This document shows, piece after piece, positions 1-64,000 of a stretch of 64,000 bases of DNA (position 1 is the stretch's first letter; each line of letters begins with the position of its first letter). The translations under genes and the position numbers were made by a program. The notes below the pieces were generated by a model, which worked only from the letters and a program-made list of their open reading frames with translations, did no database searches and was not told the origin of the DNA. Origin of the DNA: Hymenobacter oligotrophus (lineage in GTDB: Bacteria > Bacteroidota > Bacteroidia > Cytophagales > Hymenobacteraceae); the NCBI RefSeq assembly GCF_003574965.1, contig NZ_CP032317.1, positions 1,426,001 to 1,490,000 of the forward strand, in the 5' to 3' direction.

Positions 1-1
1 G

Positions 2-313
2 AACGTGCTGCTCCAGGCGTGCCGGCGGCAAGGCACGGGCAAGGTATTGGTTGATCAGCGCCACATGAGTACCCTAACTCCCGCCGAGGAACACTGGATT
101 GCCAACGATTGGCTGCCGCGCTCAGTTGTGCAGGGCAATTACCGCTACGCCGCCATTCTGCCGCCCACCGATGCCGAAGCCCTGGCTTGCATGAAGGCGC
201 TAAATTGGCCGCCGGTGCCCGAAGCACCTTACTTCGCCACCTTCAGCGACGAATCGTCGGCCCTGAGCTGGCTGCGCCGCCAAATACCCGTTGCTTCTCA
301 CCACTTAGCCTGA
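2..313 (+). CDS. C-terminal part of a small cytosolic protein, possibly SpoIIAA/STAS-like (truncated by window edge)
   Basis: The reading frame is open from the first bases of the window to a TGA at 311-313, so the true start lies upstream. About 103 residues are visible. The pattern is a buried strand (KVLVDQRHMS), an EEHW helix, an Ala/Val strand, and a terminal FATFSDESSALSWLRRQ segment. That spacing, ending in an aromatic-rich strand and an A-x-x-WL helix, resembles the short SpoIIAA-like (STAS fold) proteins common in Bacteroidota. This assignment is from pattern only and is tentative. No signal peptide or membrane segment is visible in this part. Confidence 0.6.
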   Translation, partial: NVLLQACRRQGTGKVLVDQRHMSTLTPAEEHWIANDWLPRSVVQGNYRYAAILPPTDAEALACMKALNWPPVPEAPYFATFSDESSALSWLRRQIPVASHHLA

Positions 314-620
314 TGGCTGCAGCCATTCGCTCCTGCCAGCGTGCCGTAACCCTTGACGCCTAGGTCCGAATGGTGTCGGGTGCCAAGCTGCCCTAGGTGC
401 CTACCCAGTGCAGAGCTCGTTCGAGGGAAAGACTTGGTTAGCCTTCACTAAGGGAATGGCCAACGTGGAGGCCACACTCATCATGTAAGGTTTTTGGCAA
501 CCACAGCAAGCCTCCTAACAGCCGCTTGGATACCGCGCTGCTGATGCAACTGCCCAGGCACAGCCAACCCGCTATGACTTAAGGGTTCCTTTTTGTATTG
601 TTGAGGTCAATTCCGGCGTT
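314..620. other. Intergenic stretch without a convincing gene
   Basis: About 307 bases separate the first gene from the lipoprotein gene. No open frame with a plausible start is seen on either strand. It carries two CCTAGG palindromes (359-364 and 392-397, the latter in the extended form GCCCTAGGTGCC) and a T-rich stretch near 590-600 that may belong to the promoter of the next gene. Confidence 0.5.
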
Positions 621-1151
621 ATGCTAAAACTTCTCCTGCTGCTCACCTCGCTGGCCGTTACTGCCTGCACCATTCCGCTGCCCCAACCGGCTCCCACGCC
701 CACCCCGCCCCCTGCGCCCGTGCCCAAAGTTCGCACGGTGCTGCTCTCGGCACTTGTGATGAGCGAAGGCGACGCCAGCCAGCTACCAACCGACGACCCA
801 CTGGTTACGCTGAGTTTGCGGCGCGTGGCTCCGCTGCCCGCGGGGGGATTCGAGCTTAAACCCGCCGAGCTTATTTTGCCTGCCACTCCGCTTAAGCCGC
901 ACATGCGCTACTTCAACCTACCGCCCATCGAAACCTACGCTGGCGCCCCCATGCCGGTGCTAATTGGGGAGGTTACGGTGAAAACGGCCCCGCCCCAAGG
1001 AGCCGGCCAAGGCTACCGCGTAACTGGCTCCTACACCATCGATGGGGTGGTAACCAGCAACATGCCAGCTATTTACTACATGGCGGGCGTGGCAGCTGCG
1101 GCAGGCACCCCGCTATCGTATAAAACTGAGTTTCAAGTACCGCACCAGTAG
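621..1151 (+). CDS. Putative secreted lipoprotein of unknown function
   Basis: The 176-residue product starts with a hydrophobic leader and a lipobox-like VTAC ending at Cys16, so it is probably lipidated and anchored in the envelope. A Pro-rich spacer (residues about 18-36) follows. The rest is a single small domain rich in strands (VRTVLLSALVM, GYRVTGSYTIDGVV) with no recognised catalytic motif. The ATG at 621 is the only start that preserves the leader. I do not recognise the family. The gene stands alone, and the next feature on the plus strand is more than 1 kb away. Confidence 0.8.
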   Translation: MLKLLLLLTSLAVTACTIPLPQPAPTPTPPPAPVPKVRTVLLSALVMSEGDASQLPTDDPLVTLSLRRVAPLPAGGFELKPAELILPATPLKPHMRYFNLPPIETYAGAPMPVLIGEVTVKTAPPQGAGQGYRVTGSYTIDGVVTSNMPAIYYMAGVAAAAGTPLSYKTEFQVPHQ

Positions 1152-1267
1152 CACAGCTTTTGAATACGAGCCGGCGGCCTTTAGAAGCAGCCCCGCTTGC
1201 TTCCAAAGACTAGAACACCGTCGCCTAGGGCCGCTTGGTCCGCGTGTGCGGTAAGCAACACGTTAGC

Positions 1268-1322
1268 AAAAACACACCCCGCGCCGGCGCGCTACATAAA
1301 TGCTGCGTATCGGCGCGGGGTG
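1268..1322 (-). terminator. Intrinsic terminator on the minus strand
   Basis: Perfect 12-bp arms CACCCCGCGCCG (1275-1286) and CGGCGCGGGGTG (1311-1322) are separated by 24 bases. Read on the minus strand the hairpin is followed at once by TGTTTTT (complement of 1268-1274). It lies 48 bases after the stop of the small minus-strand frame at 1370-1495, which supports that frame being transcribed. Confidence 0.6.
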
Positions 1323-1369
1323 CGTAATCCTTGGAGTTGTTTTCAGGAAAACCTTTTAACCGAGCTGCG

Positions 1370-1495
1370 TCAGCTGCGCGCTACGGGTGCAGAGGTGCTT
1401 ACGTTGGCCGGAGCGGCAGCGGCTTCTTGCTTTGAGCCACGGCTGTAGGCCGCAAAGAGCAGGGCAACAAGGGCAGTTAGGTAGAGTGTTTTCAT
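1370..1495 (-). CDS. Possible 41-residue secreted peptide
   Basis: An ATG at 1495 opens a 41-codon frame ending in TGA at 1370-1372. The peptide begins MKTLYLTALVALLFAAYSRG, a clear signal sequence, then continues with an Ala/Ser-rich tail (KQEAAAAPANV). The cleavage region LFAAYS looks like a lipobox in which the essential Cys is Tyr (TAC instead of TGC). If that is real, the peptide cannot be lipidated and would be a plain secreted peptide or a decayed lipoprotein. A minus-strand terminator at 1268-1322 follows it. It is too short for routine gene callers, and function is unknown. Confidence 0.45.
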   Translation of the reverse strand: MKTLYLTALVALLFAAYSRGSKQEAAAAPANVSTSAPVARS

Positions 1496-1647
1496 AGTGG
1501 AGTAGAGTGGCGTTAGGATAATGGTTACGCATGAATTGCTCCTGCGTTGGGTTTAATGTTGAGTTTCAAACCCAACTGCGGATGTTGCCCCTTGGCCCAC
1601 AAAGAAAATCAGCCACTCCGCTGTGCAGCAAAGTGGCCGATTGTAAG

Positions 1648-1724
1648 TGGCACCCCCGGCACGATTCGAACGTGCGACCGTCTGCTTAGAAGGCAGATGC
1701 TCTATCCAGCTGAGCTACGGGAGC
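1648..1724 (-). tRNA. tRNA-Arg (anticodon TCT)
   Basis: The minus strand folds as a full cloverleaf: acceptor GCTCCCG, D-arm AGCTCAGCTGGATAGAGC, anticodon stem TCTGC/GCAGA around loop CTTCTAA (anticodon TCT), and T-arm with GTTCGAATC. The 3' CCA is encoded (complement of 1648-1650). The first acceptor pair is a G-U wobble. It is the last of three clustered minus-strand tRNA genes. Confidence 0.95.
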
Positions 1725-1859
1725 TTATGTTGTGCTATACGCGGATTTCAAACGCAAGTAGTTGCTGCAACGACCGGAACATACTGTTGCTTGCAGCAGC
1801 CACGAAGCATCGAAAGCCGCCCACCCCACAAGGCGGGCAGACGGCTTCCGAAAAAGTAG

Positions 1860-1933
1860 TCGGGGTGGCAGGATTCGAACCTGCGGCCTCCTGCTCCCAA
1901 AGCAGGCGCGATACCGGGCTACGCTACACCCCG
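1860..1933 (-). tRNA. tRNA-Pro (anticodon TGG)
   Basis: The minus-strand cloverleaf has acceptor CGGGGTG/CACCCCG, anticodon stem CCTGC/GCAGG around loop TTTGGGA (anticodon TGG), and T-loop GTTCGAATC. The 3' CCA is not encoded; after the discriminator A the sequence reads CTA. It therefore needs CCA addition by the nucleotidyltransferase, unlike its two neighbours. Confidence 0.95.
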
Positions 1934-1995
1934 AAAGCGGCAACAGACGCTGCTGCGCTATAAAAAATCAGGCTTCCCGAAGTACGGGAAGCCCG

Positions 1996-2086
<91 letters not shown>

Positions 2087-2204
2087 GTAATTGAGGCTGA
2101 TTACCTAGTGGCCGCTTGCCCTTAGGTGCCGCAAATATACAAGCGGCAATCGAAAAACAATTGTCGAGCGAAAAAAAATCTACGTTTCAGCTCAGCAGGG
2201 CCAT

Positions 2205-2212
2205 TATCTTTG
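2205..2212 (+). promoter_or_regulatory. -7 promoter box TATCTTTG
   Basis: This is an exact match to the Bacteroidota sigma-ABfr -7 consensus TAnnTTTG, 33 bases before the ATG at 2246. A TTT-containing -33 element is possible near 2184. It supports starting the VWA gene at 2246 rather than at upstream in-frame ATGs. Confidence 0.6.
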
Positions 2213-2245
2213 ACATCGACCACCGCCCGCGCTGGGCCCGCACGC

Positions 2246-3226
2246 ATGCTTACTTGGCTGTATTCCTGGACGATTTGGGAAGCCTTGCTTACGGCTGGGG
2301 CGCTGGTGCTATATGTGGGTTACGTGTGGCGCACGGTGCGGCTTTCGCGCCCGCTCGGCATGTCGGGGTGGCGCTTGGCCTGGAAAGCCTTGCCTCGCCT
2401 GCTGGCGTTTGGGCTCTTGCTGGTAGCGCTGCTGGGCCCGGCCTACGGGCTTACCCAGCGCGCGGTGCGCACCGCCGGTAAGGACGTGTGGCTGCTTGTC
2501 GATTTGTCGCGCTCCATGGATGCTAACGACGTGGCGCCTTCGCGGCTGCAAAAAGCCAAAGCCGAGCTGACTGCTTTGGTGCAGCGCTTTCCGGCCGACC
2601 GCATTGGGCTCATCGTGTTCAGCTCCGAAGCCTTCGTACACTGCCCGCTCACTTACGACCAGGAAGCGCTGCTGATCTTGCTGAATACCCTGGATACGAA
2701 GTTAGTGCCTAAAGGCAGCACCGAGCTGACACAACCTTTGCAATTGGCCCTCGCACGCATGGCCACCTCGGCGCTTAAGCCCGACAGCGTTGGCGCACCT
2801 AGGGCCACGGCGCTGGTATTGGTGAGCGATGGCGAGGACTACAGCGACAACGTGGAAGGGGTGCTGCGCGAAGTAGTACGCAGCGGCATGCGCCTTTACA
2901 CCGTTGGGGTGGGCACCGCCGCAGGCGGGCGCATACCCCGGGCCGGCGGGTACGTGCGCGATGCGCAGGGCAAACCGGTTCTCACGCGTTTGCAGCCGGC
3001 CGTGCTGCGCCGCCTTTCCGAGGCAACCGGCGGCGTGTATGTAGAGCTGACGGACCGGCGCAACGAGTTTCCGCTGCTGTTGCGGGCCATATCGCGCCTC
3101 GAGGGCCAAACCCAGCAGGTGCGCACCGTAACCGTAGCCGACAACCGCTACCTGTACCCGTTGGCGGCGGCCTTGTTGCTGCTCGCGCTGGATGTGGTTA
3201 TATCCGTAACCGTAGTGAAGCCCTGA
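2246..3226 (+). CDS. VWA-domain membrane protein, BatB-like
   Basis: The 326-residue product has two N-terminal membrane segments (about residues 10-27 and 50-66), a von Willebrand A domain (about 80-260) and a C-terminal membrane segment (about 305-322). This is the layout of Bacteroidota BatA/BatB proteins. The metal-ion site DLSRSMD (D86, S88, S90) is intact, and the later VSDGEDYSD also fits. The start at 2246 is chosen because the membrane segment begins there and a TATCTTTG promoter box lies 34 bases upstream. Its stop overlaps the ATG of the TPR gene by one base (TGATG), indicating translational coupling. Known relatives are linked to aerotolerance or envelope stress; no MoxR or BatA gene is adjacent here. 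Confidence 0.88.
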   Translation: MLTWLYSWTIWEALLTAGALVLYVGYVWRTVRLSRPLGMSGWRLAWKALPRLLAFGLLLVALLGPAYGLTQRAVRTAGKDVWLLVDLSRSMDANDVAPSRLQKAKAELTALVQRFPADRIGLIVFSSEAFVHCPLTYDQEALLILLNTLDTKLVPKGSTELTQPLQLALARMATSALKPDSVGAPRATALVLVSDGEDYSDNVEGVLREVVRSGMRLYTVGVGTAAGGRIPRAGGYVRDAQGKPVLTRLQPAVLRRLSEATGGVYVELTDRRNEFPLLLRAISRLEGQTQQVRTVTVADNRYLYPLAAALLLLALDVVISVTVVKP

Positions 3227-4113
3227 TGCGCGGTTTGCTGCTGATACTGCTGGTGCTGGGCGGTGGCTGGTGGAGTGCCCTGCAACGCGTGCACAACGCC
3301 AACGACGCCATGCGCCTGGGGGCCAGCGCCTACGCCCAGCGCGACTACGCTACCGCCGCCGCCGCTTACGCCCGCGCCCGGGGCCTAGGTGTTACCGACG
3401 AAGGCGTGCTGCTGAACCTAGGGCATGCATACGCCCGCTTGGGCCGCCAACCCGAGGCTCGGCAAGCCTACGGCAGCCTGCTGCAAAGCGCTGTACCCGA
3501 AGTACGCAGTGTGGCCCGGCAACAGTTAGCCGTTTTGGCTGCGGCCGATGGCAACTACGCCCAAGCCACCGCTCTGCTACGGCAAGCCTTGCTCGACAAT
3601 CCGCGCAACACCGCTGCGCGCTACAACTACGAACTGCTTCGCCCCTACCAAGGCCGCCGCAACGAGCCCAATCTACCGCCCCCACCTGCCGAACGCCAGC
3701 CGCAGCCGGGTGGTGCCGGCGAGCAATCAGCCGATACGCAGCCGGCCCAAGCGCCGCCGCAAGCCGCCCCCGCTAGCGGCAACCAAGCCACTGGGCAAGG
3801 TAGCCAAACCGGCAACCTGGGCGGTAATACCAATCGGGCAACCGCACAGGGCAACAACCCTGGCAGCACGCAGGGCCTCGATACGAATGCCAACGACACC
3901 GGTGGTCCGCCAAACAACAGCGGCACCAGCGGCGAGGCGGCCAACCCCACCGATAACCGAGTAATTACCCGCCAGCGCTTGGCTCCGCTGAACCTGAACG
4001 AGGCGCAGGCCCGGCAACTATTGGACGCGCTGCAGGCCGCCGAGCAGCAGTATTTGCAGCAGCTGCCCCACAAAGCCACGCAGCGCCCCGACCCCCGCAA
4101 GCCCGCTTGGTAG
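3226..4113 (+). CDS. TPR-repeat protein, BatC-like
   Basis: The 295-residue product has an N-terminal hydrophobic segment (residues 2-17; signal anchor), then about three tetratricopeptide repeats (about 30-140, e.g. LGASAYAQRDYATAAAAYARA). A long Pro/Gln/Gly/Asn-rich low-complexity stretch (about 140-245) and a short C-terminal helix (ARQLLDALQAAEQQYLQQL) follow. TPR proteins directly downstream of BatB are BatC-type and probably assemble with the VWA protein at the membrane. The one-base overlap with the upstream gene implies an operon. Confidence 0.85.
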   Translation: MRGLLLILLVLGGGWWSALQRVHNANDAMRLGASAYAQRDYATAAAAYARARGLGVTDEGVLLNLGHAYARLGRQPEARQAYGSLLQSAVPEVRSVARQQLAVLAAADGNYAQATALLRQALLDNPRNTAARYNYELLRPYQGRRNEPNLPPPPAERQPQPGGAGEQSADTQPAQAPPQAAPASGNQATGQGSQTGNLGGNTNRATAQGNNPGSTQGLDTNANDTGGPPNNSGTSGEAANPTDNRVITRQRLAPLNLNEAQARQLLDALQAAEQQYLQQLPHKATQRPDPRKPAW

Positions 4114-4162
4114 CCCTAGGTGCCTGGCCGCCTAGTGCAGTAAGGCACCCGAAAATTCCTAC

Positions 4163-4170
4163 TACTTTTG
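4163..4170 (+). promoter_or_regulatory. -7 promoter box TACTTTTG
   Basis: An exact TAnnTTTG match 63 bases upstream of the thiolase ATG at 4234. It implies a leader of roughly 55 bases and supports starting at 4234 rather than at the in-frame ATG at 4168, which lies inside the box. Confidence 0.55.
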
Positions 4171-4233
4171 GCCTGTCGCTGCCATGCGGCAGCCCAGCCC
4201 GACTTTCTACTACAACCCCACCCTTTTACATTC

Positions 4234-5418
4234 ATGCAGACGAAAGAAGTCTATATCATTTCGGCGGTGCGCACGCCCATCGGTTCGTTTGGCGGCAGCT
4301 TGGCCTCGCTTTCGGCTACCGAGCTGGGCGGCATTGCCCTGAAAGGCGCCCTCGAGAAAGCCGGCGTGGAGCCCAAAGAGGTGCAGCAGGTAATCATGGG
4401 CAACGTGATTTCGGCCAACCTGGGCCAGGCTCCGGCCCGCCAGGCTGCCCTGAAAGCCGGCCTAGGTTACGAGGTGGAGTGCACCACCGTAAACAAAGTG
4501 TGTGCTTCGGGTTCAAAGGCCATTATGATGGCCGCCCAAGCCATTATGCTGGGCCACGCCGATGTAGTGCTGGCCGGCGGTATGGAAAGCATGTCGAACG
4601 TACCGTACTACCTCGACAAAGCCCGCTTCGGTGCCAAGTACGGCCACAGCCAGATGATCGACGGCCTGATGAAGGACGGCCTGTGGGACCCCTACCACAA
4701 CTACGCCATGGGCAACGCGGCCGAAAACACGGCCAAGAAGATGGGCATCACCCGCGAAGAGCAGGATGCCTTTGCCATTGAGAGCTACACCCGCAGCGCC
4801 AACGCGGCCAAAGCCGGCAAAAAGAAGGACGAAATCATTCCGGTTACGATTGAGCAGCGCGGCAAAACCGTGGTGGTTGAGGACGACGAGGAGTACACCA
4901 AAGTCGACTTTGCCAAAGTACCCGGCCTGAAGCCGGCTTTCATCAAAGAGGGTGGTACCGTAACCGCGGCCAATGCCTCTACCCTCAACGACGGCGCCGC
5001 CGCCGTGTTGCTGATGAGCAAGGAAAAGGCCGAAGCCCTAGGTGTTACGCCGATTGCGCGCGTACTGGGCTTTGCCGATGCCGAGCAGGCGCCGGAGTGG
5101 TTCACCACCTCGCCTTCGCTGGCTATTCCGAAGGCCCTGAAGTACGCCGGCGTAACGCCCGAGCAAGTCGACTTCTACGAAATCAACGAGGCTTTCTCGG
5201 TAGTATCACTTGCCAACAACAAGCTGCTTAAGCTAGAAGGCTCGAAAGTGAACGTGTACGGCGGTGCCGTGTCGCTGGGCCACCCGCTGGGGGCTTCGGG
5301 TGCGCGCATCGTAACCACGCTGCTGAACGTGATGCGTAACGAAGGCGGCAAGATTGGGGTAACCGGCATCTGCAACGGTGGCGGTGGCGCCAGCAGCCTC
5401 GTGTTCGAGAAATTGTAA
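4234..5418 (+). CDS. Acetyl-CoA C-acyltransferase (thiolase)
   Basis: The 394-residue product is full length for the cytosolic biosynthetic-type thiolases (AtoB/PhaA family), which condense two acetyl-CoA to acetoacetyl-CoA or run the reverse reaction. The nucleophile sits in KVCASGSKA (C90), followed by the NEAF motif, the catalytic His in GHPLGASGAR (about H350) and the acid/base Cys in GICNGGGGAS (about C380). The start at 4234 gives the usual N-terminus (KEVYIISAVRTPIG). A -7 box lies at 4163-4170 and a strong terminator at 5475-5510, so it is probably monocistronic. The sequence does not decide between beta-oxidation and biosynthesis. Confidence 0.95.
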   Translation: MQTKEVYIISAVRTPIGSFGGSLASLSATELGGIALKGALEKAGVEPKEVQQVIMGNVISANLGQAPARQAALKAGLGYEVECTTVNKVCASGSKAIMMAAQAIMLGHADVVLAGGMESMSNVPYYLDKARFGAKYGHSQMIDGLMKDGLWDPYHNYAMGNAAENTAKKMGITREEQDAFAIESYTRSANAAKAGKKKDEIIPVTIEQRGKTVVVEDDEEYTKVDFAKVPGLKPAFIKEGGTVTAANASTLNDGAAAVLLMSKEKAEALGVTPIARVLGFADAEQAPEWFTTSPSLAIPKALKYAGVTPEQVDFYEINEAFSVVSLANNKLLKLEGSKVNVYGGAVSLGHPLGASGARIVTTLLNVMRNEGGKIGVTGICNGGGGASSLVFEKL

Positions 5419-5474
5419 TTGCTGCTCGGCGAATTGCTGGCTCGCAGTTCGCTGGCTCATGCGCACTGAATTCC

Positions 5475-5510
5475 GGTGCCACGTCTTTCGGGTCGTGGCA
5501 CCTTTTTTTT
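5475..5510 (+). terminator. Intrinsic terminator after the thiolase gene
   Basis: Perfect 9-bp arms GGTGCCACG (5475-5483) and CGTGGCACC (5494-5502) with a 10-base loop are followed by eight T residues (5503-5510). Confidence 0.85.
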
Positions 5511-5683
5511 GCCTAGGGCAGCGCCAAGCCCTAGGTGCCTAAGTGGTATTTCTGCAAGCCCCGGGCAGGCAGCACCTTTACGAGCGCAACTGTGTTTAGC
5601 CAACTGCCCGAAAGCTTACGCGTAGCTTCGGCACAATTTTTCTAGGACAAGCGCAGTTAATTCGAAAGCGCATATTTGACGGC

Positions 5684-7090
5684 ATGAACAAACTACTGCT
5701 GGCGGGCTCCCTCCTGCTGCTAGCGGCTCCGGCCTGGGCCCAACGCCCCCGCGTCTTCACCACATACTTCGATACCACCCACACCAAAAAGCGCGAAGTG
5801 TACCGCGCCTTGGTAGGGGCCGATACCGTGATGGAAGGCCCTTACAAACGCTTTTACCGCTCGGGCAAGTTGGAGGTGCAAACCAGCTACCGGGGCGGCA
5901 AGCCCGATAGCGCCTACGTGGAGTTTTTTGCAACGGGGCAGCGCCGACTTGAAGTAACCTTCAAAGAAGGCCAGCGGCAAGGACCTTTCCGCACGTTTTA
6001 CCCCACGGGCAAAGTAGCGCAGGAAGGCTCTTACGTCGACGACCAGCCCACGGGCAATATCAAGATGTACCACCCCTCGGGCGAGCTGAAACTGGAAACC
6101 ACGTTGGAGCGCGGTCAGCCCTCCGGTGTGGTGCGCCAGGTGTATGCCTCGGGCAAGCCCCAGGTTGAGATGACCTACAAGGACGGGCAGCCCAACGGCG
6201 TGGTGCGCACCTACTTCCCCAACGGGCAGCTGCAAAGCGAAGGCACCTACCGCAACGGCCTGTTGGCCGGCGGCTACAAAACCTGGTACAGCAACGGCCA
6301 GCTCGAAACGGAGGTGACCATGGACAACACCGGCCGCGGCACCATGCGCACCTACTACCCTACGGGCAAGCTGCGCACCGAGGGCAACTACGTGCCGGCC
6401 ACCGTCGCTACCCGGCAGGTAACCAACCAGCTCGGCGACGACCTTACCAAACGCGCTCAACAGCTAGCCCCCGGCACGGCCAACCTCGAAGGCGCCGTGA
6501 AAACTTACTACGAGGACGGCAAGCTGAAAAGCACACAGAATTACAAAGCCGGTTTGCTGACGGGACTATCCCGCTACTTCTACCCGTCGGGCAAGCCGGA
6601 GCAGGAAGTGGTGTACTCCAATGCGGCCAAAGATCGTAAGGTGACGGTATTTTTCGAGGAAGGCGGCGTGAAGGAAGAGCAGGAGTACAAGAACACCCAG
6701 CGCAACGGCACGTGGCGCACCTTCTTCCCCAACAGTAAGCAGGTGCAGCGAAAGGAAACCTACCTCAACGGCCGTTTGGTGGGCGACCAAACCACCTACT
6801 TCCCTACCGGTCAGGTTCAGCGCAAACTCACCTTCGAGGGCGGCAAAGCCGTGGGCGCCGAGCAGGAATTCTACCAGTCGGGTAAGCTCCGGAGCGAAAC
6901 TGCTTGGAAGGCTGGGCTGAAATCGGGCCCTTTCCGCCAATTGCGCGAAGATGGTACCCTGGAGGTACAAGGACAGTTCCGCAACAACCGCGAAACCGGC
7001 GTGTGGAGCTACTTCGGCCCCGATGGCAAAACCGTATCGGAAAAGAAGACTTTACGGAATGGGCAGGTAGTTGCCCCCGGTACCAAGTAA
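5684..7090 (+). CDS. Secreted MORN-repeat protein (YwqK-like)
   Basis: The 468-residue product has a signal peptide (MNKLLLAGSLLLLAAPAWAQ) followed by about fifteen MORN-type repeats of the form G-x-x-x-x-Y/F-x-x-x-G-K-L-x-x-E-x-x-Y. Examples are YRSGKLEVQTSYRGG and YPTGKLRTEGNY. The repeats run to the end with no separate catalytic domain. Such proteins are often labelled YwqK-family antitoxins, but nothing here indicates a toxin-antitoxin pair. A periplasmic or surface scaffold role is a guess. The gene stands alone between two terminators and, unlike most genes here, contains no CCTAGG site. Confidence 0.85.
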   Translation: MNKLLLAGSLLLLAAPAWAQRPRVFTTYFDTTHTKKREVYRALVGADTVMEGPYKRFYRSGKLEVQTSYRGGKPDSAYVEFFATGQRRLEVTFKEGQRQGPFRTFYPTGKVAQEGSYVDDQPTGNIKMYHPSGELKLETTLERGQPSGVVRQVYASGKPQVEMTYKDGQPNGVVRTYFPNGQLQSEGTYRNGLLAGGYKTWYSNGQLETEVTMDNTGRGTMRTYYPTGKLRTEGNYVPATVATRQVTNQLGDDLTKRAQQLAPGTANLEGAVKTYYEDGKLKSTQNYKAGLLTGLSRYFYPSGKPEQEVVYSNAAKDRKVTVFFEEGGVKEEQEYKNTQRNGTWRTFFPNSKQVQRKETYLNGRLVGDQTTYFPTGQVQRKLTFEGGKAVGAEQEFYQSGKLRSETAWKAGLKSGPFRQLREDGTLEVQGQFRNNRETGVWSYFGPDGKTVSEKKTLRNGQVVAPGTK

Positions 7091-7115
7091 ACCGCAGCCT
7101 GTAGGCTACAGCCAC

Positions 7116-7151
7116 AACCGCCAACTCGTCCTGGGTTGGCGGTTTTCTTTT
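7116..7151 (+). terminator. Intrinsic terminator after the MORN-repeat gene
   Basis: Arms AACCGCCAAC (7116-7125) and GTTGGCGGTT (7135-7144) with a 9-base loop are followed by TTCTTTT. Confidence 0.8.
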
Positions 7152-15474: not shown

Positions 15475-15477
15475 GGG

Positions 15478-57174: not shown

Positions 57175-57177
57175 CGC

Positions 57178-58236
57178 CTACTTCAGGCTGTAAATTCGCT
57201 CGATGATTTCCACCACTTTCAGTCCGTCGTGGGCGTTGGTGGTGGCTACGGTTCGGTGCTGCAAGGTGTCAATCACGTTTTCGATGAGGTGCACGTGGTT
57301 GGCGGCGCTGCCTTGGTAAGTGCCGTAATCGTTGGCGGGGTTGGTGCGGGGCAGCGCGGGCAGTTGGTAATTGCGGATGTGGCAATACTCCACCTTGTCC
57401 ATGTACTGGCCCGCAATGCGCAGGCTGCCGTGCTCGGCCACCACCGTAATGGAGCTTTCAAGGTTACGGTCCCACACGCTGGTGCTGTATTGCAAGGTGC
57501 CGCTGCCGCCCCGTACCAGATCGAACGCCACAAGGCCTGAGTCTTCGAACTCGGTAAGCTCGTGGTGGTTGAAGTCGCGGAACCGGGCCTCGATGTTGGT
57601 GATGTCGCCAAACACCCAGTACAACAAATCGACGAAGTGGCTGAACTGTGTGAACAGCGTACCGCCATCGAGGGCGCGCGTGCCGTGCCAGCTGCCGGGG
57701 CGGTAGTAGCGGGTGTCGCGGTTCCAGAAGCAGTTGATTTGCACCAAGTAAATCTGCCCTAGGTGGCCTTCGTCGTACACCTGCTTGAGCCAGGCGGCAG
57801 GCGGCGAGTAACGGTTTTGCATCACCCCAAACACCAGCCGGTTGGTTTGCTGCGCCGTTTGCACAATGGCTTCGGCATCGGCGCGGCGCAGGGCCAGCGG
57901 TTTTTCTACCACCACGTGCAGGCCGTGGCGCAGCGCCTGCGTGGCCTGCTCGGCGTGCAAATAATTGGGCGTGGCCACGGTCAGCACATCGGCGGCGGGG
58001 CCTTGCCCTAGGTACTCCTCGAGCGAGGCAAAGCACGGCACCCCCGCAAACTCGGCTGCCAAGGCCGCGTGCAGCGCCGCATCGGTGTCGATAAGAGCCA
58101 CCAAACGCGCCGCGGGGCTGCGGGCTACCAAGGCGGCGTGGCGCCGGCCAATGTGCCCGGCCCCGCAAATCACAAAACGAACAACCGGCAAGGCAGCCGC
58201 GCCCAAGCCGGTACCGGAGGTACTTGCAGCAAACAC
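57178..58236 (-). CDS. Gfo/Idh/MocA-family oxidoreductase, WbpB-like
   Basis: The 352-residue NAD(P)-dependent dehydrogenase has the Rossmann motif VICGAGHIGRRHAAL and the EKPLA motif (GLHVVVEKPLALRRADAEAI) with the conserved Lys. The substrate domain shows QNRYSPPAAWLK, RYYRPGSWHGTRALDGGTLF and THFVDLLYW-like FSHFVDLLYWVFGD. In surface-sugar pathways such enzymes (WbpB/WlbA) oxidise C3 of a UDP-HexNAc acid before transamination; a DegT aminotransferase gene lies 1 kb upstream on the same strand. The start is a GTG at 58236, since no ATG precedes the fold. A terminator hairpin (58297-58328) lies upstream. Confidence 0.88.
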   Translation of the reverse strand: MFAASTSGTGLGAAALPVVRFVICGAGHIGRRHAALVARSPAARLVALIDTDAALHAALAAEFAGVPCFASLEEYLGQGPAADVLTVATPNYLHAEQATQALRHGLHVVVEKPLALRRADAEAIVQTAQQTNRLVFGVMQNRYSPPAAWLKQVYDEGHLGQIYLVQINCFWNRDTRYYRPGSWHGTRALDGGTLFTQFSHFVDLLYWVFGDITNIEARFRDFNHHELTEFEDSGLVAFDLVRGGSGTLQYSTSVWDRNLESSITVVAEHGSLRIAGQYMDKVEYCHIRNYQLPALPRTNPANDYGTYQGSAANHVHLIENVIDTLQHRTVATTNAHDGLKVVEIIERIYSLK

Positions 58237-58296
58237 GCCGCAAGCTCCGAAAAAAGCGGCTTCCGACGAGCCTTGTTCATCATAAGATAAACGCGC

Positions 58297-58328
58297 GAGG
58301 GCTCCGCAGCAACCGCCGCGGAGCCCTC
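58297..58328 (-). terminator. Hairpin terminator after the M48 protease gene
   Basis: Perfect 11-bp arms GAGGGCTCCGC (58297-58307) and GCGGAGCCCTC (58318-58328) with a 10-base loop. It lies between the protease stop and the oxidoreductase start and suggests separate transcripts. Confidence 0.6.
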
Positions 58329-58351
58329 GGCCCTAAAAGCCACGGCCCGAC

Positions 58352-59158
58352 CTAGAGAATGCGCTTGAGCTCCTCGAAGCTGCCATTGGATACCGAGCGG
58401 TTGGTGCAGCCCAGTTGGCGGGCACTGTTCTGGATGCTCGTAACGCGCGAGCCGGGGTTGGGGTGCGTGCTCAGGAACTCAGGCGAGCGGGCACCGCCCT
58501 GCTTTTCGGCCTTGATGAAGAAGCCCGCGGCGCCGTCGCAGGCGTAATAGCGCGTGCCGTTGAGGTACACGGTAGAGTACTTATCGGCCTCTTGCTCGAA
58601 GGTGCGGCTGAACTTGAGCTGGCCCAGGCCGGCGGCAATTTGCGTGAGCATGTTGGGGTTTTTGCCCAGCACCACCCCCATCAGCAGGCTGATGCCGTAC
58701 TGGCGCTGCAGCAGCTGGGTGCTGTGGCGGCGGTCGGCGTGGGCAATTTCGTGGCCGATTACGCCCGCCAGTTGGCTTTCGTTATCGAGGAACTTGATGA
58801 GCCCCGTAAACACGTAGATGTGGCCGCCGGGCGTGGCAAACGCATTTTGCATCTGGTCGTCCTTGATGATCTTGACATCCCAGGCAAACTGGTTACGGTA
58901 CTTGATGTTGCCGTTGTCAAGCACGCGCTTCACCACGCCGTCGAGCAGCTGGTAGGCGCGGGCGTTGCTGCCGCGCGACAGCAGCTGGCCTTTGGCTTGG
59001 TAGAGCGAATCGGTTTGGTGGGCCACCTGCGCCCCCAGGGCAATGTCCTGGTCGACGGAGAAAATGTTGAAGCCCTGGTGCGGTTTGTTGATGGCGGCGG
59101 TGGTGAGGCCGGCTAGTGCCGTGAGGCCCGCCAGCAGGCCAAGAAAAGAGCGGGTCAT
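58352..59158 (-). CDS. M48-family zinc metalloprotease, secreted or periplasmic
   Basis: The 268-residue product begins with a hydrophobic leader (SFLGLLAGLTALAGLTTAAI) and carries the HEIAH zinc motif in VIGHEIAHADRRH (H136, E137, H140). The third ligand is in RTFEQEADKYS (about E190). MQNAFATPGGHIYVFTGL is the strand before the helix, and FLSTHPNPGSRVTSIQ the C-terminal family signature. It resembles BepA/LoiP-type periplasmic quality-control proteases but lacks TPRs. No Cys follows the leader, so it is likely soluble or anchored by the leader. Confidence 0.92.
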   Translation of the reverse strand: MTRSFLGLLAGLTALAGLTTAAINKPHQGFNIFSVDQDIALGAQVAHQTDSLYQAKGQLLSRGSNARAYQLLDGVVKRVLDNGNIKYRNQFAWDVKIIKDDQMQNAFATPGGHIYVFTGLIKFLDNESQLAGVIGHEIAHADRRHSTQLLQRQYGISLLMGVVLGKNPNMLTQIAAGLGQLKFSRTFEQEADKYSTVYLNGTRYYACDGAAGFFIKAEKQGGARSPEFLSTHPNPGSRVTSIQNSARQLGCTNRSVSNGSFEELKRIL

Positions 59159-59224
59159 GTGCGTGGTAATCGGGTTGATGACGACGAGTTGTACGGGCGC
59201 AAGAAAAAACAGTGCCAGCCGCGC

Positions 59225-60382
59225 TCAACCTTGCGCCCAGGCTTGCACCACCTCCGCTACGTAGCTCACCTGCGCAGCCGGCATGGCCGGGTGAATGGGC
59301 AGCGAAAGCACCGTGCGGCACAGCTGATCGGCCACCGGAAACGCCCCCGGCGAGTAGCCTAGGTGTTGGTAAGCCGGCTGCAGGTGCAAGGGCGTTGGGT
59401 AGTACACCACCGAGGGCACGCCGTGCTGCTTCAGAAACTGTTGCAAGGCAGCGCGCTCGGTTTGGCTGGCCAGCGTAAGCGTGTACTGATGAAACACGTG
59501 GGTGCTGCCCGCCTGCCGGGCCGGTATGCGTAAGCGCGGCAAATCACCTAGGGCGGTATCGTAGCGGGCGGCAATTTGCTGGCGCGCGGCCGTCCAGGCG
59601 CCTAGGTGCGGCAGCTTCACGCGCAATAAGGCAGCTTGCAACGTATCGAGGCGGGAGTTGAGGCCCACGCAGTGGTGAACGTATTTCTGGCCGGGGCGCT
59701 GGCCGTGGTTGGCTAGCTGGTAGAGCTGCGCGGCGCGGCCAGCATCGTGGGTGAGTACGGCCCCGCCGTCGCCGAACGCGCCTAGGTTTTTCGAGGGAAA
59801 AAACGAGGTAGTACCTGCCTCGCCAACCGTGCCGGCTGCCACCGAGCAGCCATCGGGCAGTTGCCAGGTGGCCCCAATGGCCTGGGCGTTGTCCTCGATG
59901 AGGGCGAGACTGTGCTGTTGGCACAGCCGCTGCAGGGCGGTTAGGTCGGCGCACTGGCCGTAGAGGTGCACAACCATAACGGCCCGTGTGCGGGGGGTAA
60001 TGGCTGCGGCGGCAGCGGCCGGATCGAGCGTGAAGGTATGAGGCAGAACATCGGCCAGCACCGGTTTCAGGCCCAGCACGGCCACGGCCTCGGCGGAGGC
60101 CACGTACGTAAACGCGGGCACTATTACCTCGTCGCCGGGTTGCAAACCCAGGCTCATCAGGGCGAGCTGCAGGGCGTCGGTACCGTTGGCGCAGGGCACC
60201 ACGTGGGCGCCGCCTAAGTAGGCGCCCAGTTCGTTGGCAAACAACTGAACCTCCGCACCCTGAATAAAATCGGCGGCCTGCATAACGCGCTGCAGGGCGG
60301 CCTCGAGGGCGGTTTGCAAGGGGGCGTGCTGCGCCGGTAAATCGAGCAGTCGGACGGGTGACGCGGGCACTTCGGAACGCAC
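59225..60382 (-). CDS. DegT/DnrJ/EryC1/StrS-family sugar aminotransferase, WbpE-like
   Basis: The product is a PLP-dependent sugar aminotransferase of about 385 residues: RLLDLPAQHAPLQTAL at the start, FIQGAEVQLFANELGAYLG, CANGTDALQLALMSLGLQPG, PAFTYVASAEA, LIEDNAQAIGA, and PLP Lys in TSFFPSKNLGAFGDGG. Together with the Gfo/Idh dehydrogenase downstream it could make a 3-amino-3-deoxy UDP-sugar for a surface glycan. The start is uncertain: GTG 60382 is used because a TATATTTC promoter-like box lies within the longer frame that begins at GTG 60454. Confidence 0.88.
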   Translation of the reverse strand: MRSEVPASPVRLLDLPAQHAPLQTALEAALQRVMQAADFIQGAEVQLFANELGAYLGGAHVVPCANGTDALQLALMSLGLQPGDEVIVPAFTYVASAEAVAVLGLKPVLADVLPHTFTLDPAAAAAAITPRTRAVMVVHLYGQCADLTALQRLCQQHSLALIEDNAQAIGATWQLPDGCSVAAGTVGEAGTTSFFPSKNLGAFGDGGAVLTHDAGRAAQLYQLANHGQRPGQKYVHHCVGLNSRLDTLQAALLRVKLPHLGAWTAARQQIAARYDTALGDLPRLRIPARQAGSTHVFHQYTLTLASQTERAALQQFLKQHGVPSVVYYPTPLHLQPAYQHLGYSPGAFPVADQLCRTVLSLPIHPAMPAAQVSYVAEVVQAWAQG

Positions 60383-60580
60383 AGAAACCGGCAAAACAAC
60401 GTGGAAAAGCCGAAATATAGCGCTACCTCTGGGTTTGCGCAGGATGAGTGGCACAAAACCCGGGCCAGGCTGGCATCCTAGTCGCCAAACATGCGTAACC
60501 TACTATGTATGGCCTGCGTTTAGCGGGCCAAGATGGCCGCAGCCGCGCGCGGCTTCCTTCCCACCCTAACCCCGACGATC

Positions 60581-61558
60581 ATGTTTAAGAAATCCATTTC
60601 CACGCACGCCCTCGCCCTGCTGTTGCTGGGTGGCGGCCTTGCCTTCAGCCAAGCCAGCTGCAACCGCGCCGAGCGCCAGGAAACCGCCTCCGAAACGGGC
60701 GCCGCTACCAACGATGCCTACAACGACTTCAAAACCTTTGTAGCCAACACCGAGGCCCGCGCCGACAGCATGGGCGACCTGACGGAAGCCGAGTACAACG
60801 AAGAAAGCACCCAGCTCAAGAGCGATTACGACAGCAAAGTTGCGGCTGCCGAGGCCGATATGGCCACTTGGGATGATACGCGCAAAACGGAGTACGAGCA
60901 GCTGAAAACCCGCTACAACACGGCCTACACGCGCCGCGAAGAAACCTATCGTAACCGCGGGGCCGTGGCTACGAGCACTACCACGGGGGGCAGCTCGGCC
61001 GCGGGCAACAGCTCGATGAAGCCTGTTTTGGGCATCGGCAACATGGGCAAATATTACAAGCCCAGCAACCCGTCGGCTAGCCTTACCGCCGCCAACGCCC
61101 GCCAGACGTACGAAGACTTCGTGCAGATGGTGAAGCAGAACGAAGACCGCTACGACATCAACGACTGGCGCAACATCAACGCCGACTGGCGTGCCCTCGA
61201 CCAGAAGTACGAGCAAATTAAGGGCGATGTAAGCACCGGCGACAAAGCCGAAATTGCCAAGGAAAAGCTGAAATACGCCGCCTTTAAATCGTACGACAAG
61301 GCCGAAACCCGCGTGTCGCAGGGCGCCGACCTGGCCACCGGCAACCGCGAAGAGGCAGCCGCCAAAGGCTCGGGCGTACGCCTGGAGCAGTCGGCCCGCA
61401 ACGCTGGCTCCGACGCCAAAGAGGTTGGCAAAGACGCCGCTGAAACCGGCAAGGACGCTGGCCAAAGCGCTAAAAACGTAGGCCAAAAAGTTGGCGGCGC
61501 CGTAAAGGGCGCTTACAAAGAAGTGAAGTCGGAGGTTAAGAACACCGACAAGGACTAA
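60581..61558 (+). CDS. Secreted protein with LEA-like C-terminal repeats
   Basis: From ATG 60581 the product is 325 residues: a hydrophobic leader ending SQASCNRAE (possible relaxed lipobox with Cys), then two related helical segments. Examples are YNDFKTFVANTEARADSMGD and YEDFVQMVKQNEDRYDIND, each followed by a Y-x-x-K/L-rich helix. The last 60 residues repeat an 11-mer-like pattern with Lys, Asp, Ala and Gly (DAKEVGKDAAETGKDAGQSA, KNVGQKVGGAVKGAYKEVKS), like group 3 LEA proteins that protect cells during drying. Envelope-located desiccation or stress protection is inferred. A terminator whose loop contains CCTAGG follows. Confidence 0.82.
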   Translation: MFKKSISTHALALLLLGGGLAFSQASCNRAERQETASETGAATNDAYNDFKTFVANTEARADSMGDLTEAEYNEESTQLKSDYDSKVAAAEADMATWDDTRKTEYEQLKTRYNTAYTRREETYRNRGAVATSTTTGGSSAAGNSSMKPVLGIGNMGKYYKPSNPSASLTAANARQTYEDFVQMVKQNEDRYDINDWRNINADWRALDQKYEQIKGDVSTGDKAEIAKEKLKYAAFKSYDKAETRVSQGADLATGNREEAAAKGSGVRLEQSARNAGSDAKEVGKDAAETGKDAGQSAKNVGQKVGGAVKGAYKEVKSEVKNTDKD

Positions 61559-61590
61559 GCTACTGCTCCCACTACCCATACGCCTATTGC

Positions 61591-61621
61591 AAAAAAGCCG
61601 GCCCCCTAGGTCGGCTTTTTT
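61591..61621. terminator. Bidirectional terminator with CCTAGG in the loop
   Basis: AAAAAAGCCG (61591-61600) and CGGCTTTTTT (61612-61621) pair perfectly around GCCCCCTAGGT. It serves the LEA-like gene and the convergent glycosyltransferase gene. Confidence 0.8.
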
Positions 61622-61625
61622 GTTT

Positions 61626-62525
61626 TTAGCTGCCGCGCCGCCAAGCACGCAGCAGCCACAACAGCTTCAACAAATCGAGGCTCCGTAAGCTGGGCTTGGG
61701 TTGCAATACTTGCCGGCGCAGCCACGGCTCGGCCAGCGCCAGGGCTGCCAATGCCGGCCCCGCCAACCCTAGATGCCGCAGGCGCTGGCCGGCGGCCAGC
61801 AGCCGGGTACGGGCGCCGAGGCCGTAGGCGCGGTGGAGCTGCAGCAGGTTGTGCGCAGCGGCCTGGCTTTTTTGCAGAAACACCTCGGCCGGCTCGAGCA
61901 CGGCGTGCTCCACGGGGTTGTGCAAATGGTACACCGGAACGCCTTGTTGGCCAAGCTGCCAGCCCAGTAAGGTATCCTCGTGGCCGTATTGCTGCAGTCT
62001 TTCGTCGAGCGGAAACTGCCGGAACACAGCCGCGCTAATGAGCACGTTTTTCAGGCTGAGCTGCGCATGTGGTGCCTGTTGCCGCACCGCGGCGGAGCGC
62101 GCTTCGCGCGCACGGCCGTAGTGCCACCGCAGGCAGTGGCGGGCATCGGAAGGTGGATTGGGGCTGTACGCGGTGCCGCCCACCAACACCGGCGCGCGGC
62201 CAAGGGCATCGGCGTACCGCGCCAAAAAATCGGGCGCGGCCACGCGTACGTTGTTATCGAGCAGCAACAGCCATGGATACAGCGCCGCGGCAGCCAGCCG
62301 GTTGCGAATGGCCGCGCGCCCTAGGTTATGCGGCAACTCGTGGTAGCGCACACCCGGCAACCCGGCAATTTCGCGGTTTCGTTGCTTAACCGCTTCGTCG
62401 GAGCCGTCGTCGAAGCAAAGCACCTCCACGGGGCCAGGCCACAGCGCAGCCTGGCTTACCAGCGCCTGTGCCAGCGCCCGTACATCGCAGTTGTACACCG
62501 GTATGAGTACCGAGAGGCCAGGCAT
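61626..62525 (-). CDS. Glycosyltransferase family 2
   Basis: The 299-residue GT-A enzyme has LSVLIPVYNCDVRALAQALV, EVLCFDDGSDEAVK, HNLGRAAIRNRLAAAALYPW, and a DxD-equivalent LLLLDNNVRV. The acceptor-side motif YGHEDTLLGWQLGQQG (the ED before the helix being the usual catalytic base region) and LSLKNVLISAAVFRQFPLDE are also present. A basic C-terminal helix (SLDLLKLLWLLRAWRRGS) may contact the membrane. The acceptor is not predictable. It is followed on its strand by the terminator at 61591-61621; the upstream gene on the same strand is the FtsE-type ATPase. Confidence 0.88.
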   Translation of the reverse strand: MPGLSVLIPVYNCDVRALAQALVSQAALWPGPVEVLCFDDGSDEAVKQRNREIAGLPGVRYHELPHNLGRAAIRNRLAAAALYPWLLLLDNNVRVAAPDFLARYADALGRAPVLVGGTAYSPNPPSDARHCLRWHYGRAREARSAAVRQQAPHAQLSLKNVLISAAVFRQFPLDERLQQYGHEDTLLGWQLGQQGVPVYHLHNPVEHAVLEPAEVFLQKSQAAAHNLLQLHRAYGLGARTRLLAAGQRLRHLGLAGPALAALALAEPWLRRQVLQPKPSLRSLDLLKLLWLLRAWRRGS

Positions 62526-62578
62526 GAAGCAGTTGGCTAAACGAAGTGCAACAAAGCCGACCTAGGCAAGGCGCCGCG

Positions 62579-63283
62579 CTACAGCCAGGTGGTTACGCGC
62601 AGGTCGTCGTTGGTGATGACGCGCAGCTTGCCGTCTTCGCAGCGGAGTACGCGCTTGGGGTAACGCCGGATGAGCTCGTAGTTGTGGGTAGCCATTAGCA
62701 CGGCCGTGCCGGCGTTGTTGATTTCCATAAACAAGCGCATGATGCCGTCAGTCACGTCGGGGTCGAGGTTGCCGGTGGGCTCGTCGGCCAGCAGTACCAT
62801 GGGCTCGTTGAGCATGGCGCGGGCAATTACCACGCGCTGCTGCTCGCCGCCCGAAAGCTGGTGGGGCATTTTGCCGGTTACGCCTGTTAGGCCCACGCGC
62901 ATGAGCACATCCTGCACGCGCTGCTTCATTTTGGCTTTGTCGCGCCAGCCGGTAGCCTGCAGCACAAACAGCAGGTTTTGGGCCACCGAACGGTCGTAGA
63001 GCAGCTGAAAATCCTGAAACACGATGCCCAGCTTGCGGCGCAAGTACGGCACTTTTTCGGGGGCCAAGTTGCGCAACGAGTAGCCTACCACCGTGCCCAT
63101 GCCCTCGTGCAATGGCAAATCGGCGTACAGAGTTTTCAGCAACGAGCTTTTGCCCGAGCCCGTGCGGCCCACCAAGTAAGCAAACTCGCCTTTGCCCAAC
63201 TCAAACGACACGTTTTGCAGGATGGTGTTTACGTCCTGCATCACGTAGGCGTCGCGGAGCTCAATAACGGCGGAGTTATCCAT
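62579..63283 (-). CDS. ftsE: Cell-division ATP-binding protein FtsE (ABC ATPase)
   Basis: The 234-residue ABC ATPase has Walker A GRTGSGKS (39-46), Q-loop IVFQDFQLL, signature LSGGEQQRVVIARA, Walker B VLLADEPTGNLD and the H-loop MATHNYELI. DFQLLYDRSVAQNLLFVLQATG and the short length fit FtsE, which with FtsX controls peptidoglycan hydrolysis at the septum. No ftsX gene is adjacent, so the partner is elsewhere, or this could be another short ABC ATPase of the LolD type. The first of these is favoured by DRSVAQNL. Confidence 0.87.
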   Translation of the reverse strand: MDNSAVIELRDAYVMQDVNTILQNVSFELGKGEFAYLVGRTGSGKSSLLKTLYADLPLHEGMGTVVGYSLRNLAPEKVPYLRRKLGIVFQDFQLLYDRSVAQNLLFVLQATGWRDKAKMKQRVQDVLMRVGLTGVTGKMPHQLSGGEQQRVVIARAMLNEPMVLLADEPTGNLDPDVTDGIMRLFMEINNAGTAVLMATHNYELIRRYPKRVLRCEDGKLRVITNDDLRVTTWL

Positions 63284-63385
63284 GGCTTCGGAAAAGTAGC
63301 GGAATGGGCGGTGGCAGCCAAGGCATACGGCCGCTTACCTAGAGCAAGTTTTGGGCGTGCGGGCTGCCGCGTCGGGGCAGGCTGG

Positions 63386-63589
63386 CTACAGGTTCAGGGG
63401 TTGCAGCTTGCCAAACTCCAGCTGCTCAATTACGGCGGCCAACTCCACTTCCTTGCCCTCTAGGCCGTAGCGGTGCAGGTCTTTCAGGGGGCGGTCGGCG
63501 CGGAAGTAGGCAATCAGCACGAAATCGTTGTCGCGCAGCTGAATGTAATCCGGAATCTTGGCCTTGCCTTTGACTTTGATGATGTACAT
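63386..63589 (-). CDS. Small conserved-looking cytosolic protein of unknown function
   Basis: The 67-residue product (MYIIKVKGKAKIPDYIQLRD..., then DNDFVLIAYFRADRPLKDL and VELAAVIEQLEFGKLQPL) looks like a compact alpha/beta protein without signal peptide or Cys. The regular strand-helix pattern and good start at 63589 support it as real. It sits directly downstream of the transaldolase-type aldolase gene on the same strand, separated by an inverted repeat, so the two may be co-transcribed. Family not recognised. Confidence 0.75.
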   Translation of the reverse strand: MYIIKVKGKAKIPDYIQLRDNDFVLIAYFRADRPLKDLHRYGLEGKEVELAAVIEQLEFGKLQPLNL

Positions 63590-63607
63590 GTAGTTAGTAC
63601 CGAGTAC

Positions 63608-63675
63608 TGAGATATGAGAAGTGAGACCCGACTGGCCTTTCGACCAAAGTCTAACGTCTCACATCTCAATTCTCA
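63608..63675. repeat. Imperfect 20-bp inverted repeat TGAGATATGAGAAGTGAGAC / GTCTCACATCTCAATTCTCA
   Basis: The arms at 63608-63627 and 63656-63675 match at 17 of 20 positions when one is reverse-complemented. The unit is made of GAGA/TCTC-rich words and lies between the aldolase gene and the small gene. It resembles simple intergenic repeats rather than a terminator. Confidence 0.5.
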
Positions 63676-63685
63676 GGTCTAACAT

Positions 63686-64000
63686 TTAGGCGTTTACGCG
63701 CTTGTGGTCGGCCAGGAAAGTGGCGAGGCCTTTGTCGGTAAGCGGGTGGCTGAGCAAGCCCGTAATCACGTTGAGCGGGCAGGTTACCACGTCGGCCCCG
63801 ATTTCGGCGCACTGAATGAGGTGCGGCACGTGGCGCAACGAGGCGGCCAGCACTTGCGTGGGGTAGCCGTAATTGCCGAAGATGTTCACAATTTGCTCGA
63901 TCAGCTGCAGGCCGTCGTGGCCGATATCGTCGAGGCGGCCCACAAACGGCGACACGTAGGTAGCACCGGCTTTGGCAGCCAGCAGGGCTTGGCCGGCCGA
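63686..64000 (-). CDS. Fructose-6-phosphate aldolase / transaldolase-type protein, C-terminal part (truncated by window edge)
   Basis: The frame is open to the window end, so the N-terminus is missing; about 104 residues are present. [60 protein letters not shown] and [12 protein letters not shown] are characteristic of the small transaldolase/F6P-aldolase (TalC/Fsa) family. These cleave or transfer dihydroxyacetone units in the pentose phosphate area. The catalytic Lys lies in the missing part. Which of the two activities it has cannot be decided here. Confidence 0.9.

What the first reader, a model, noticed from the sequence alone, without database searches (positions are those of the whole stretch)
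1..64000. CCTAGG behaves as a highly iterated palindrome (extended form GCCCTAGGTGC)
By hand count CCTAGG occurs about 99 times, roughly once per 650 bases. With an assumed GC content near 63% and independent bases about 20 would be expected. It is found in genes on both strands, mostly in the Leu-Gly frame (CTA GGT/GGC/GGG) or the Pro-Arg frame (CCT AGG). It also occurs in many intergenic gaps (392, 4115, 5530, 11436, 12083, 22572, 30256) and even in a terminator loop (61605). The preferred flank is GCC before and TGC after. Conserved genes such as ffh (34054-35394), pseB and most of the APC permease lack it. CTAG is usually rare in bacteria, so the excess is striking. It resembles HIP1 of cyanobacteria or an uptake/chromosome-organisation motif; cause unknown. 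I know of no description for this lineage, but could not check.
Basis: partly seen in the sequence, partly recalled or inferred. Interest (0 to 1): 0.75.

Follow-up and report, generated by a model that had tools for sequence, protein, structure and literature searches.

The report
Uptake-sequence-like DNA word in Solirubrum
The chromosome of this bacterium is sprinkled about once per 800 bases with one short, directional DNA word that is nearly missing from its small extra contigs and from sister species, and related genera carry other words around the same two letters, much like the DNA-uptake signals of Neisseria but in bacteria where no pilus motor gene was found.

Summary
The count is right and genome-wide: 99 CCTAGG in the window (13.6 expected), 5678 in 4.19 Mb (reversed control 67). 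Three of eight genomes of the genus have 5325-6212 copies; five have 123-249.

But it is not a palindrome. The excess sits in a directional octamer, [C/G]CCTAGGT: in genes CCCTAGGT is 50-fold over a synonymous-codon shuffle, palindromic ACCTAGGT and CCCTAGGG hardly raised. It shows no consistent strand bias, is twice as dense between genes as in them, is evenly spread on the chromosome and nearly absent from small contigs. No methyltransferase of four Pfam families is shared by the three rich genomes, unlike cyanobacterial HIP1.

In 29 of 80 Hymenobacteraceae loci a clade-specific word around TA stands out (AACTATA, AGGTATA, AAGTATA and others); a few of these look palindromic. This resembles DNA-uptake-sequence dialects, yet none of 34 genomes has a pilus/secretion ATPase over cut-off. 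I read it as an uptake-like signal with an unknown, pilus-independent receptor: description firm, function inferred (about 0.37).

The parts
358..62326 (+). 56 copies of the octamer BCCTAGGT on the + strand, 8 bases each, starting at 358, 391, 3383, 4114, 4460, 5036, 5529, 7266, 9732, 9969, 11435, 12082, 13259, 16324, 16390, 17371, 17882, 19845, 20244, 20442, 21676, 22571, 24936, 25809, 26711, 27524, 29243, 29393, 30255, 33635, 36220, 37436, 37853, 38021, 38684, 41111, 43031, 43603, 45167, 45491, 46358, 47039, 48117, 49109, 50868, 52447, 53791, 55446, 55801, 57757, 58006, 59357, 59600, 59780, 61604, 62319
   Evidence: 39 are CCCTAGGT, 16 GCCTAGGT, 1 TCCTAGGT
2797..62567 (-). 35 copies of the same octamer on the - strand (read ACCTAGGV on +), starting at 2797, 3416, 8289, 11392, 11880, 12500, 14321, 15446, 21646, 21922, 22411, 27744, 28282, 29822, 30624, 31073, 32187, 32788, 33147, 33899, 34045, 36592, 37091, 38438, 42590, 44373, 44859, 49245, 51571, 52027, 52147, 52915, 55222, 59546, 62560
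   Evidence: 20 ACCTAGGG, 13 ACCTAGGC, 2 ACCTAGGA
1223..50515 (.). 8 CCTAGG sites outside the directional octamer: CCTAGG at 1224, 5512 (GCCTAGGG), 7527, 11023, 48395 (ACCTAGGT), 12964, 50509 (GCCTAGGC), 28112 (CCCTAGGG)
61604..61611 (+). octamer CCCTAGGT in the loop of a terminator-like hairpin (one of the 56 above)

Best explanation
Shown: the chromosome carries a directional octamer [C/G]CCTAGGT at about 1.2 per kb (304-kb sample). It is abundant in three related genomes and nearly absent in five sister species of the genus; nearly absent from small contigs taken to be plasmids, and missing from two stretches with phage genes; evenly spread in samples of the chromosome without consistent strand bias. 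Other Hymenobacteraceae carry other words around TA, by clade. Inferred: these are uptake-sequence-like signals. A surface or periplasmic receptor prefers DNA that holds the word; imported kin DNA replaces resident DNA by recombination; near-matches are thus converted to the word and it accumulates where coding constraint allows. The receptor changes specificity between clades, giving dialects. As no pilus ATPase was found, the outer-membrane step would be pilus-independent, as in the competent Bacteroidota Riemerella.
For: Directionality: palindromic octamers 24 against 150 expected (G000), 20 against 150 (G005), 22 against 68 (G007); synonymous shuffle CCCTAGGT 156 against 3.1, ACCTAGGT 4 against 1.6. 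Density 2.31/kb between genes, 1.10/kb in genes (G005 2.21 and 0.98); gaps of G000+G005: convergent 3.32, tandem 2.45, divergent 1.28 per kb, orientation in tandem gaps 73 with and 56 against. Twelve 20-kb samples round C1 hold 25-38 CCTAGG each; contigs C2-C4 of G000 (82.7 of 84.9 kb read) hold 3 CCTAGG and no octamer; 40 kb of two small G005 contigs 2 and 1; a 12.5-kb G007 contig 2 and 2. The two longest CCTAGG-free gaps in the G007 sample hold portal, terminase and integrase genes. Against a consensus of the poor sisters CCTGGG became CCTAGG in 30 of 75 (near contexts 14 of 279) and CCTCGG in 16 of 58 (5 of 336): a transition and a transversion both raised. Words follow an ffh tree: 12 changes for 10 groups, least possible 9, shuffled mean 33.8. 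ComEC in 38 of 38 genomes. DUS: a site every 400-1100 bp, dialects with a shared 3-base core, loss in genomic islands (passages of PMC7371117 and PMC3630211). R. columbina prefers its own DNA; the Riemerella screen implicates non-pilus outer-membrane proteins (PMC7965970 section 16, PMC8459023 passages).
Against: No competence or uptake preference was measured. No pilus/secretion ATPase over cut-off in 34 of 34 genomes (15 have a weak match below it). ComEC is also in motif-free genomes. DUF5689, a domain of a Riemerella uptake protein, is over cut-off in 7 of 16 motif-rich and 8 of 18 motif-free genomes, and 10 of 14 ORFs scanned round comEC in G000 gave no outer-membrane family. Exact octamer 21.8-fold, one-mismatch forms 1.1-fold: sharp, as for restriction or modification enzymes. 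CCTTGG became CCTAGG in 0 of 18. In H. polaris, H. crusticola and the GCTAGC species the flanks fit a palindrome (12 against 12.9 expected, 7 against 7.3, 28 against 27). Orientation in genes is uneven in several words (AAGTATA 163 with, 93 against; GGGGTAG 16 and 45), and GGGGTAG is not denser between genes (0.95 against 1.18/kb). For AAGTATA divergent gaps are not poorer (4.57 against 3.75/kb tandem). In the window itself the strands are 56 and 35.
Confidence: 0.37

Rival explanations
1. Recognition site of a DNA-modifying enzyme, as Elhai proposed for HIPs: methylation-guided mismatch repair preserves the motif, so it accumulates.
For: Similar density and replacement of the word between lineages in cyanobacteria (PMC4390886, parts of Results and Discussion read); sharp specificity; words of H. 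polaris, H. crusticola and the GCTAGC species look palindromic; change of word resembles change of a target-recognition domain (inference).
Against: Across PF00145, PF01555, PF02086 and PF02384, G000 has one hit (PF02384), G007 one hit (PF01555, on a 12.5-kb contig with 2 octamers), G005 hits in three families; no family is shared by all three. In Solirubrum the word is not palindromic. PF07669, BREX PglX and other classes were not searched.
Confidence: 0.22
2. Recombination or chromosome-maintenance signal read by a helicase-nuclease (Chi-like) or by a nucleoid protein, marking self chromosome.
For: Directional, sharp, chromosomal, nearly absent on small contigs, missing in two stretches with phage genes.
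Against: No consistent strand bias: twelve samples of C1 sum to 173 forward and 155 reverse, or 165 and 163 when sorted by the sign of local GC skew (my sum of the rows; the origin was not located); 205 and 182 in the 304-kb region. Chi is expected to favour the leading strand (recalled). AddAB/RecBCD were not searched.
Confidence: 0.2
3. Context-dependent mutation or very-short-patch over-repair creates the word without function.
For: G005 has a Vsr homologue and has CCTGGG where G000 has CCTAGG in 67 cases against 15 the other way.
Against: Vsr is absent from motif-rich G000 and G007 and present in motif-poor G001. A transition and a transversion into the word are raised about 8- and 18-fold over near contexts. 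Small contigs of similar G+C nearly lack the word. By recalled E. coli specificity Vsr would destroy, not create, CCTAGG.
Confidence: 0.1

Closest known systems
DNA uptake sequence (DUS) dialects of Neisseriaceae / USS of Pasteurellaceae
   Same: Short directional word every 400-1100 bp, clade-specific dialects with a small invariant core, reduced in genomic islands (passages of PMC3630211, PMC7371117).
   Different: 8 bases rather than 9-12; Bacteroidota with no pilus ATPase over cut-off; one-mismatch forms hardly over-represented; words of some Hymenobacter look palindromic; uptake untested.
HIP1 and alternate HIPs of cyanobacteria
   Same: About 1000-2000 per Mb; replaced by another word in some relatives (PMC4390886).
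   Different: HIPs are palindromic and go with a methyltransferase; in Solirubrum the word is directional and no enzyme of four families is shared.
Chi sites
   Same: Short, directional, chromosomal.
   Different: No consistent strand bias; the enzyme was not searched.

Membership tests
Highly iterated palindrome (HIP) | palindromic word | tested here: not met
   Solirubrum: palindromic octamers 24 against 150 expected; hardly raised over synonymous shuffle. Words of H. polaris, H. crusticola and GCTAGC species do fit a palindrome
Highly iterated palindrome (HIP) | about 1-2 copies per kb genome-wide | tested here: met
   5678 in 4.19 Mb
Highly iterated palindrome (HIP) | cognate methyltransferase present | tested here: inconclusive
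   none shared by the three rich genomes in PF00145, PF01555, PF02086, PF02384; other classes not searched
DUS/USS | directional, strand-neutral word about once per kb | tested here: met
   Solirubrum:
DUS/USS | clade-specific dialects with common core | tested here: met
   words around TA, 12 changes for 10 groups on the ffh tree; found and counted on the same loci
DUS/USS | reduced in mobile DNA | tested here: met
   small contigs and two G007 gaps with phage genes
DUS/USS | type IV pilus machinery | tested here: not met
   PF00437: none of 34 genomes over cut-off
DUS/USS | ComEC channel | tested here: met
   38 of 38 genomes, not discriminating
DUS/USS | preferential uptake of word-bearing DNA | not testable with these tools
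   needs a transformation assay
Chi | leading-strand bias | tested here: not met
   173:155 over 12 samples, 165:163 sorted by GC-skew sign, 205:182 in 304 kb; origin not located
Chi | cognate AddAB/RecBCD | not tested

The most novel reading that the evidence does not exclude
Hymenobacteraceae (Solirubrum, Hymenobacter, Pontibacter) have their own uptake-sequence system: at least seven dialects around TA that evolve with a pilus-independent receptor, an origin independent of Neisseriaceae and Pasteurellaceae.
Probability: 0.32. Interest if true: 0.92.

Novelty: new variant of a known kind. Interest (0 to 1): 0.75.

Why it matters
In the papers I saw, genome-saturating uptake words belong to Neisseriaceae and Pasteurellaceae. 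A third, apparently pilus-less family with many dialects would allow a test of whether such words arise by biased uptake, by repair or by selection. The sister species with 5000-6000 against 120-250 copies, about 80% identical where they align and largely collinear round the window, are a ready natural experiment.

Tried and rejected
HIP (palindrome plus methyltransferase): rejected for Solirubrum on flank asymmetry and on the lack of a shared enzyme in four families. Vsr over-repair: Vsr does not track the motif. Pilus-based uptake: no ATPase over cut-off. DUF5689 as receptor: over cut-off in 7 of 16 motif-rich and 8 of 18 motif-free genomes; in Pontibacter it sits with proteins of about 1080 and 490 aa, which looks like a SusC/SusD operon by size and order, not scanned. 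Neighbours of comEC in G000: 10 of 14 ORFs scanned, no outer-membrane family, one of 215 aa without any family. Over-regular spacing: G000 interval CV 0.877 against control 0.987 +- 0.045, but G005 0.945 against 0.998 is not clear and G007 is dominated by two phage-gene gaps; left open. Promoter or terminator element: orientation in tandem gaps is near even.

Literature: nine searches listed no paper that I could see to describe this word or uptake sequences in this family; only open-licence PMC papers are covered, and I read titles and abstract starts except where a paper is cited.

On re-checking I lowered the uptake reading from 0.40 to 0.37 and the novel case from 0.35 to 0.32, and raised the methyltransferase rival from 0.20 to 0.22, because one search shows palindrome-like words in some Hymenobacter.
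Full report
Observation. The window has 99 CCTAGG; dinucleotide shuffles give 13.6 +- 3.5 and base composition 20.9. The genome (G000, 4,188,814 bases) has 5678, against 67 for the reversed control GGATCC. Of 58 genomes searched (G000 included), three of the same genus have thousands (G000 5678, G005 5325, G007 6212) and the other five of that genus 123-249; the 50 outside the genus have 5-807, the highest being G048 (genus repeated). In 76-80 kb samples the five poor sisters have 0-4 CCTAGG each; in the three rich genomes it is the most over-represented hexamer among those counted at least 15 times. That G005 belongs with G000 and G007 rests on DNA identity (0.875 and 0.871 to G000, against 0.79-0.80 for the poor sisters).

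It is directional. In 304 kb of G000 (the window plus 240 kb of flank) the 424 sites are CCCTAGGT 135, ACCTAGGG 101, ACCTAGGC 65, GCCTAGGT 59 and 64 others; palindromic octamers number 24 against 150 if the two flanks were independent. G005 (20 against 150) and G007 (22 against 68) agree. In coding sequence, synonymous-codon shuffles (200, each gene keeping its protein and codon usage) give CCCTAGGT 3.1 against 156 observed and GCCTAGGT 9.1 against 95; ACCTAGGT (4 against 1.6) and CCCTAGGG (2 against 1.4) are hardly raised. Exact SCCTAGGT is 21.8-fold over a trinucleotide model, one-mismatch forms 1.1-fold (G005 20.7 and 1.06, G007 13.7 and 1.24; three poor sisters 0-0.26 and 0.87-0.97).

Where it is. 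Genes here come from a simple gene finder of mine. Octamer density is 2.31/kb between genes and 1.10/kb in genes in G000 (G005 2.21 and 0.98); in genes it runs 149 with and 123 against the gene (G005 122 and 121), in 249 of 272 cases (217 of 243) in the phase that reads Leu-Gly. Pooled over G000 and G005, convergent gaps have 3.32/kb, tandem 2.45, divergent 1.28. Twelve 20-kb samples round C1 have 25-38 CCTAGG each with no consistent strand bias; the window itself has 56 on + and 35 on -. Contigs C2-C4 of G000 (82.7 of 84.9 kb read), which I take for plasmids by size, have 3 CCTAGG and no octamer; 40 kb of two small G005 contigs have 2 CCTAGG and 1 octamer; G007 C4 (12.5 kb) has 2 and 2. In the G007 sample the two longest gaps (17.5 and 12.0 kb) hold portal, terminase, integrase and resolvase genes among 10 proteins scanned.

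How it arises. Against a majority consensus of the poor sisters, with the five other bases equal, CCTGGG is CCTAGG in G000 in 30 of 75 cases (near contexts 14 of 279), CCTCGG in 16 of 58 (5 of 336), CCTTGG in 0 of 18 (1 of 119). A transition and a transversion are both raised, which speaks against simple deamination; the zero for CCTTGG is unexplained (it may often be non-synonymous; not tested). Between rich genomes 249 of 376 aligned G000 sites are identical in G005 and 81 of 121 in G007; in the smaller first alignment the figures were 65 of 100 and 34 of 48, against 46% and 52% for hexamers at large.

Enzymes. In the eight genomes of the genus C5-methyltransferases (PF00145) occur in G001, G004 and G005; PF01555 in six but not G000 or G003; PF02086 only in G003 and G006; PF02384 once in G000, twice in G005, not in G007; Vsr (PF03852) in G001 and G005. 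None tracks the motif. Other methyltransferase classes were not searched. Elhai's HIP account (PMC4390886; outline, one part of Results, first part of Discussion read) goes with a palindrome and a cognate enzyme.

Reading. The Solirubrum pattern is the genome signature of uptake sequences: spacing of 400-1100 bp, dialects with a shared core, reduced in islands (PMC3630211 and PMC7371117, passages). But none of 34 genomes, rich or poor, has a PF00437 ATPase over cut-off, so the neisserial machinery is not there and I do not file it as DUS/USS. ComEC is in 38 of 38, and transformation with own-DNA preference is known in the Bacteroidota genus Riemerella, where a screen implicated non-pilus outer-membrane proteins (PMC8459023 passages, PMC7965970 passages and section 16). 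The receptor was not found. I hold the uptake-like reading at about 0.37, with a modification enzyme at 0.22 and a Chi-like or chromosome-marking protein at 0.2.

Noticed in passing
window 24770-24860 and 15471-15755: GC-rich intergenic repeats, the first folding into hairpins: 1.2-1.8 matches per 100 kb in G000 and G005 samples, none in the G007 sample, two in G004 and one in G001.
   Followed up: partly
L008 (G005) and L009 (G001): Vsr homologues; G005 has CCTGGG where G000 has CCTAGG in 67 cases against 15 the other way, as Vsr erosion of CTAGG would predict.
   Followed up: partly
L095 (Hymenobacter coccineus), L101 (H. caeli): GGGCCC is over-abundant (56 in 15.5 kb against 16.6 expected, 30 in 11.9 kb against 14.6), a possible true palindromic case.
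   Followed up: no
[not shown]
   Followed up: no
L185, L184, L026 (G007 C7 about 295-333 kb): Portal, terminase, integrase and resolvase genes in the two longest CCTAGG-free gaps of the G007 sample.
   Followed up: partly
window 55635-55727 and 1651-2086: SAM riboswitch (minus strand) and a cluster of three tRNAs; a fourth tRNA at 30779-30850.
   Followed up: no
G048 (same order): 807 CCTAGG in 4.0 Mb (control 62), but no outstanding word in its 20-kb sample L225.
   Followed up: partly
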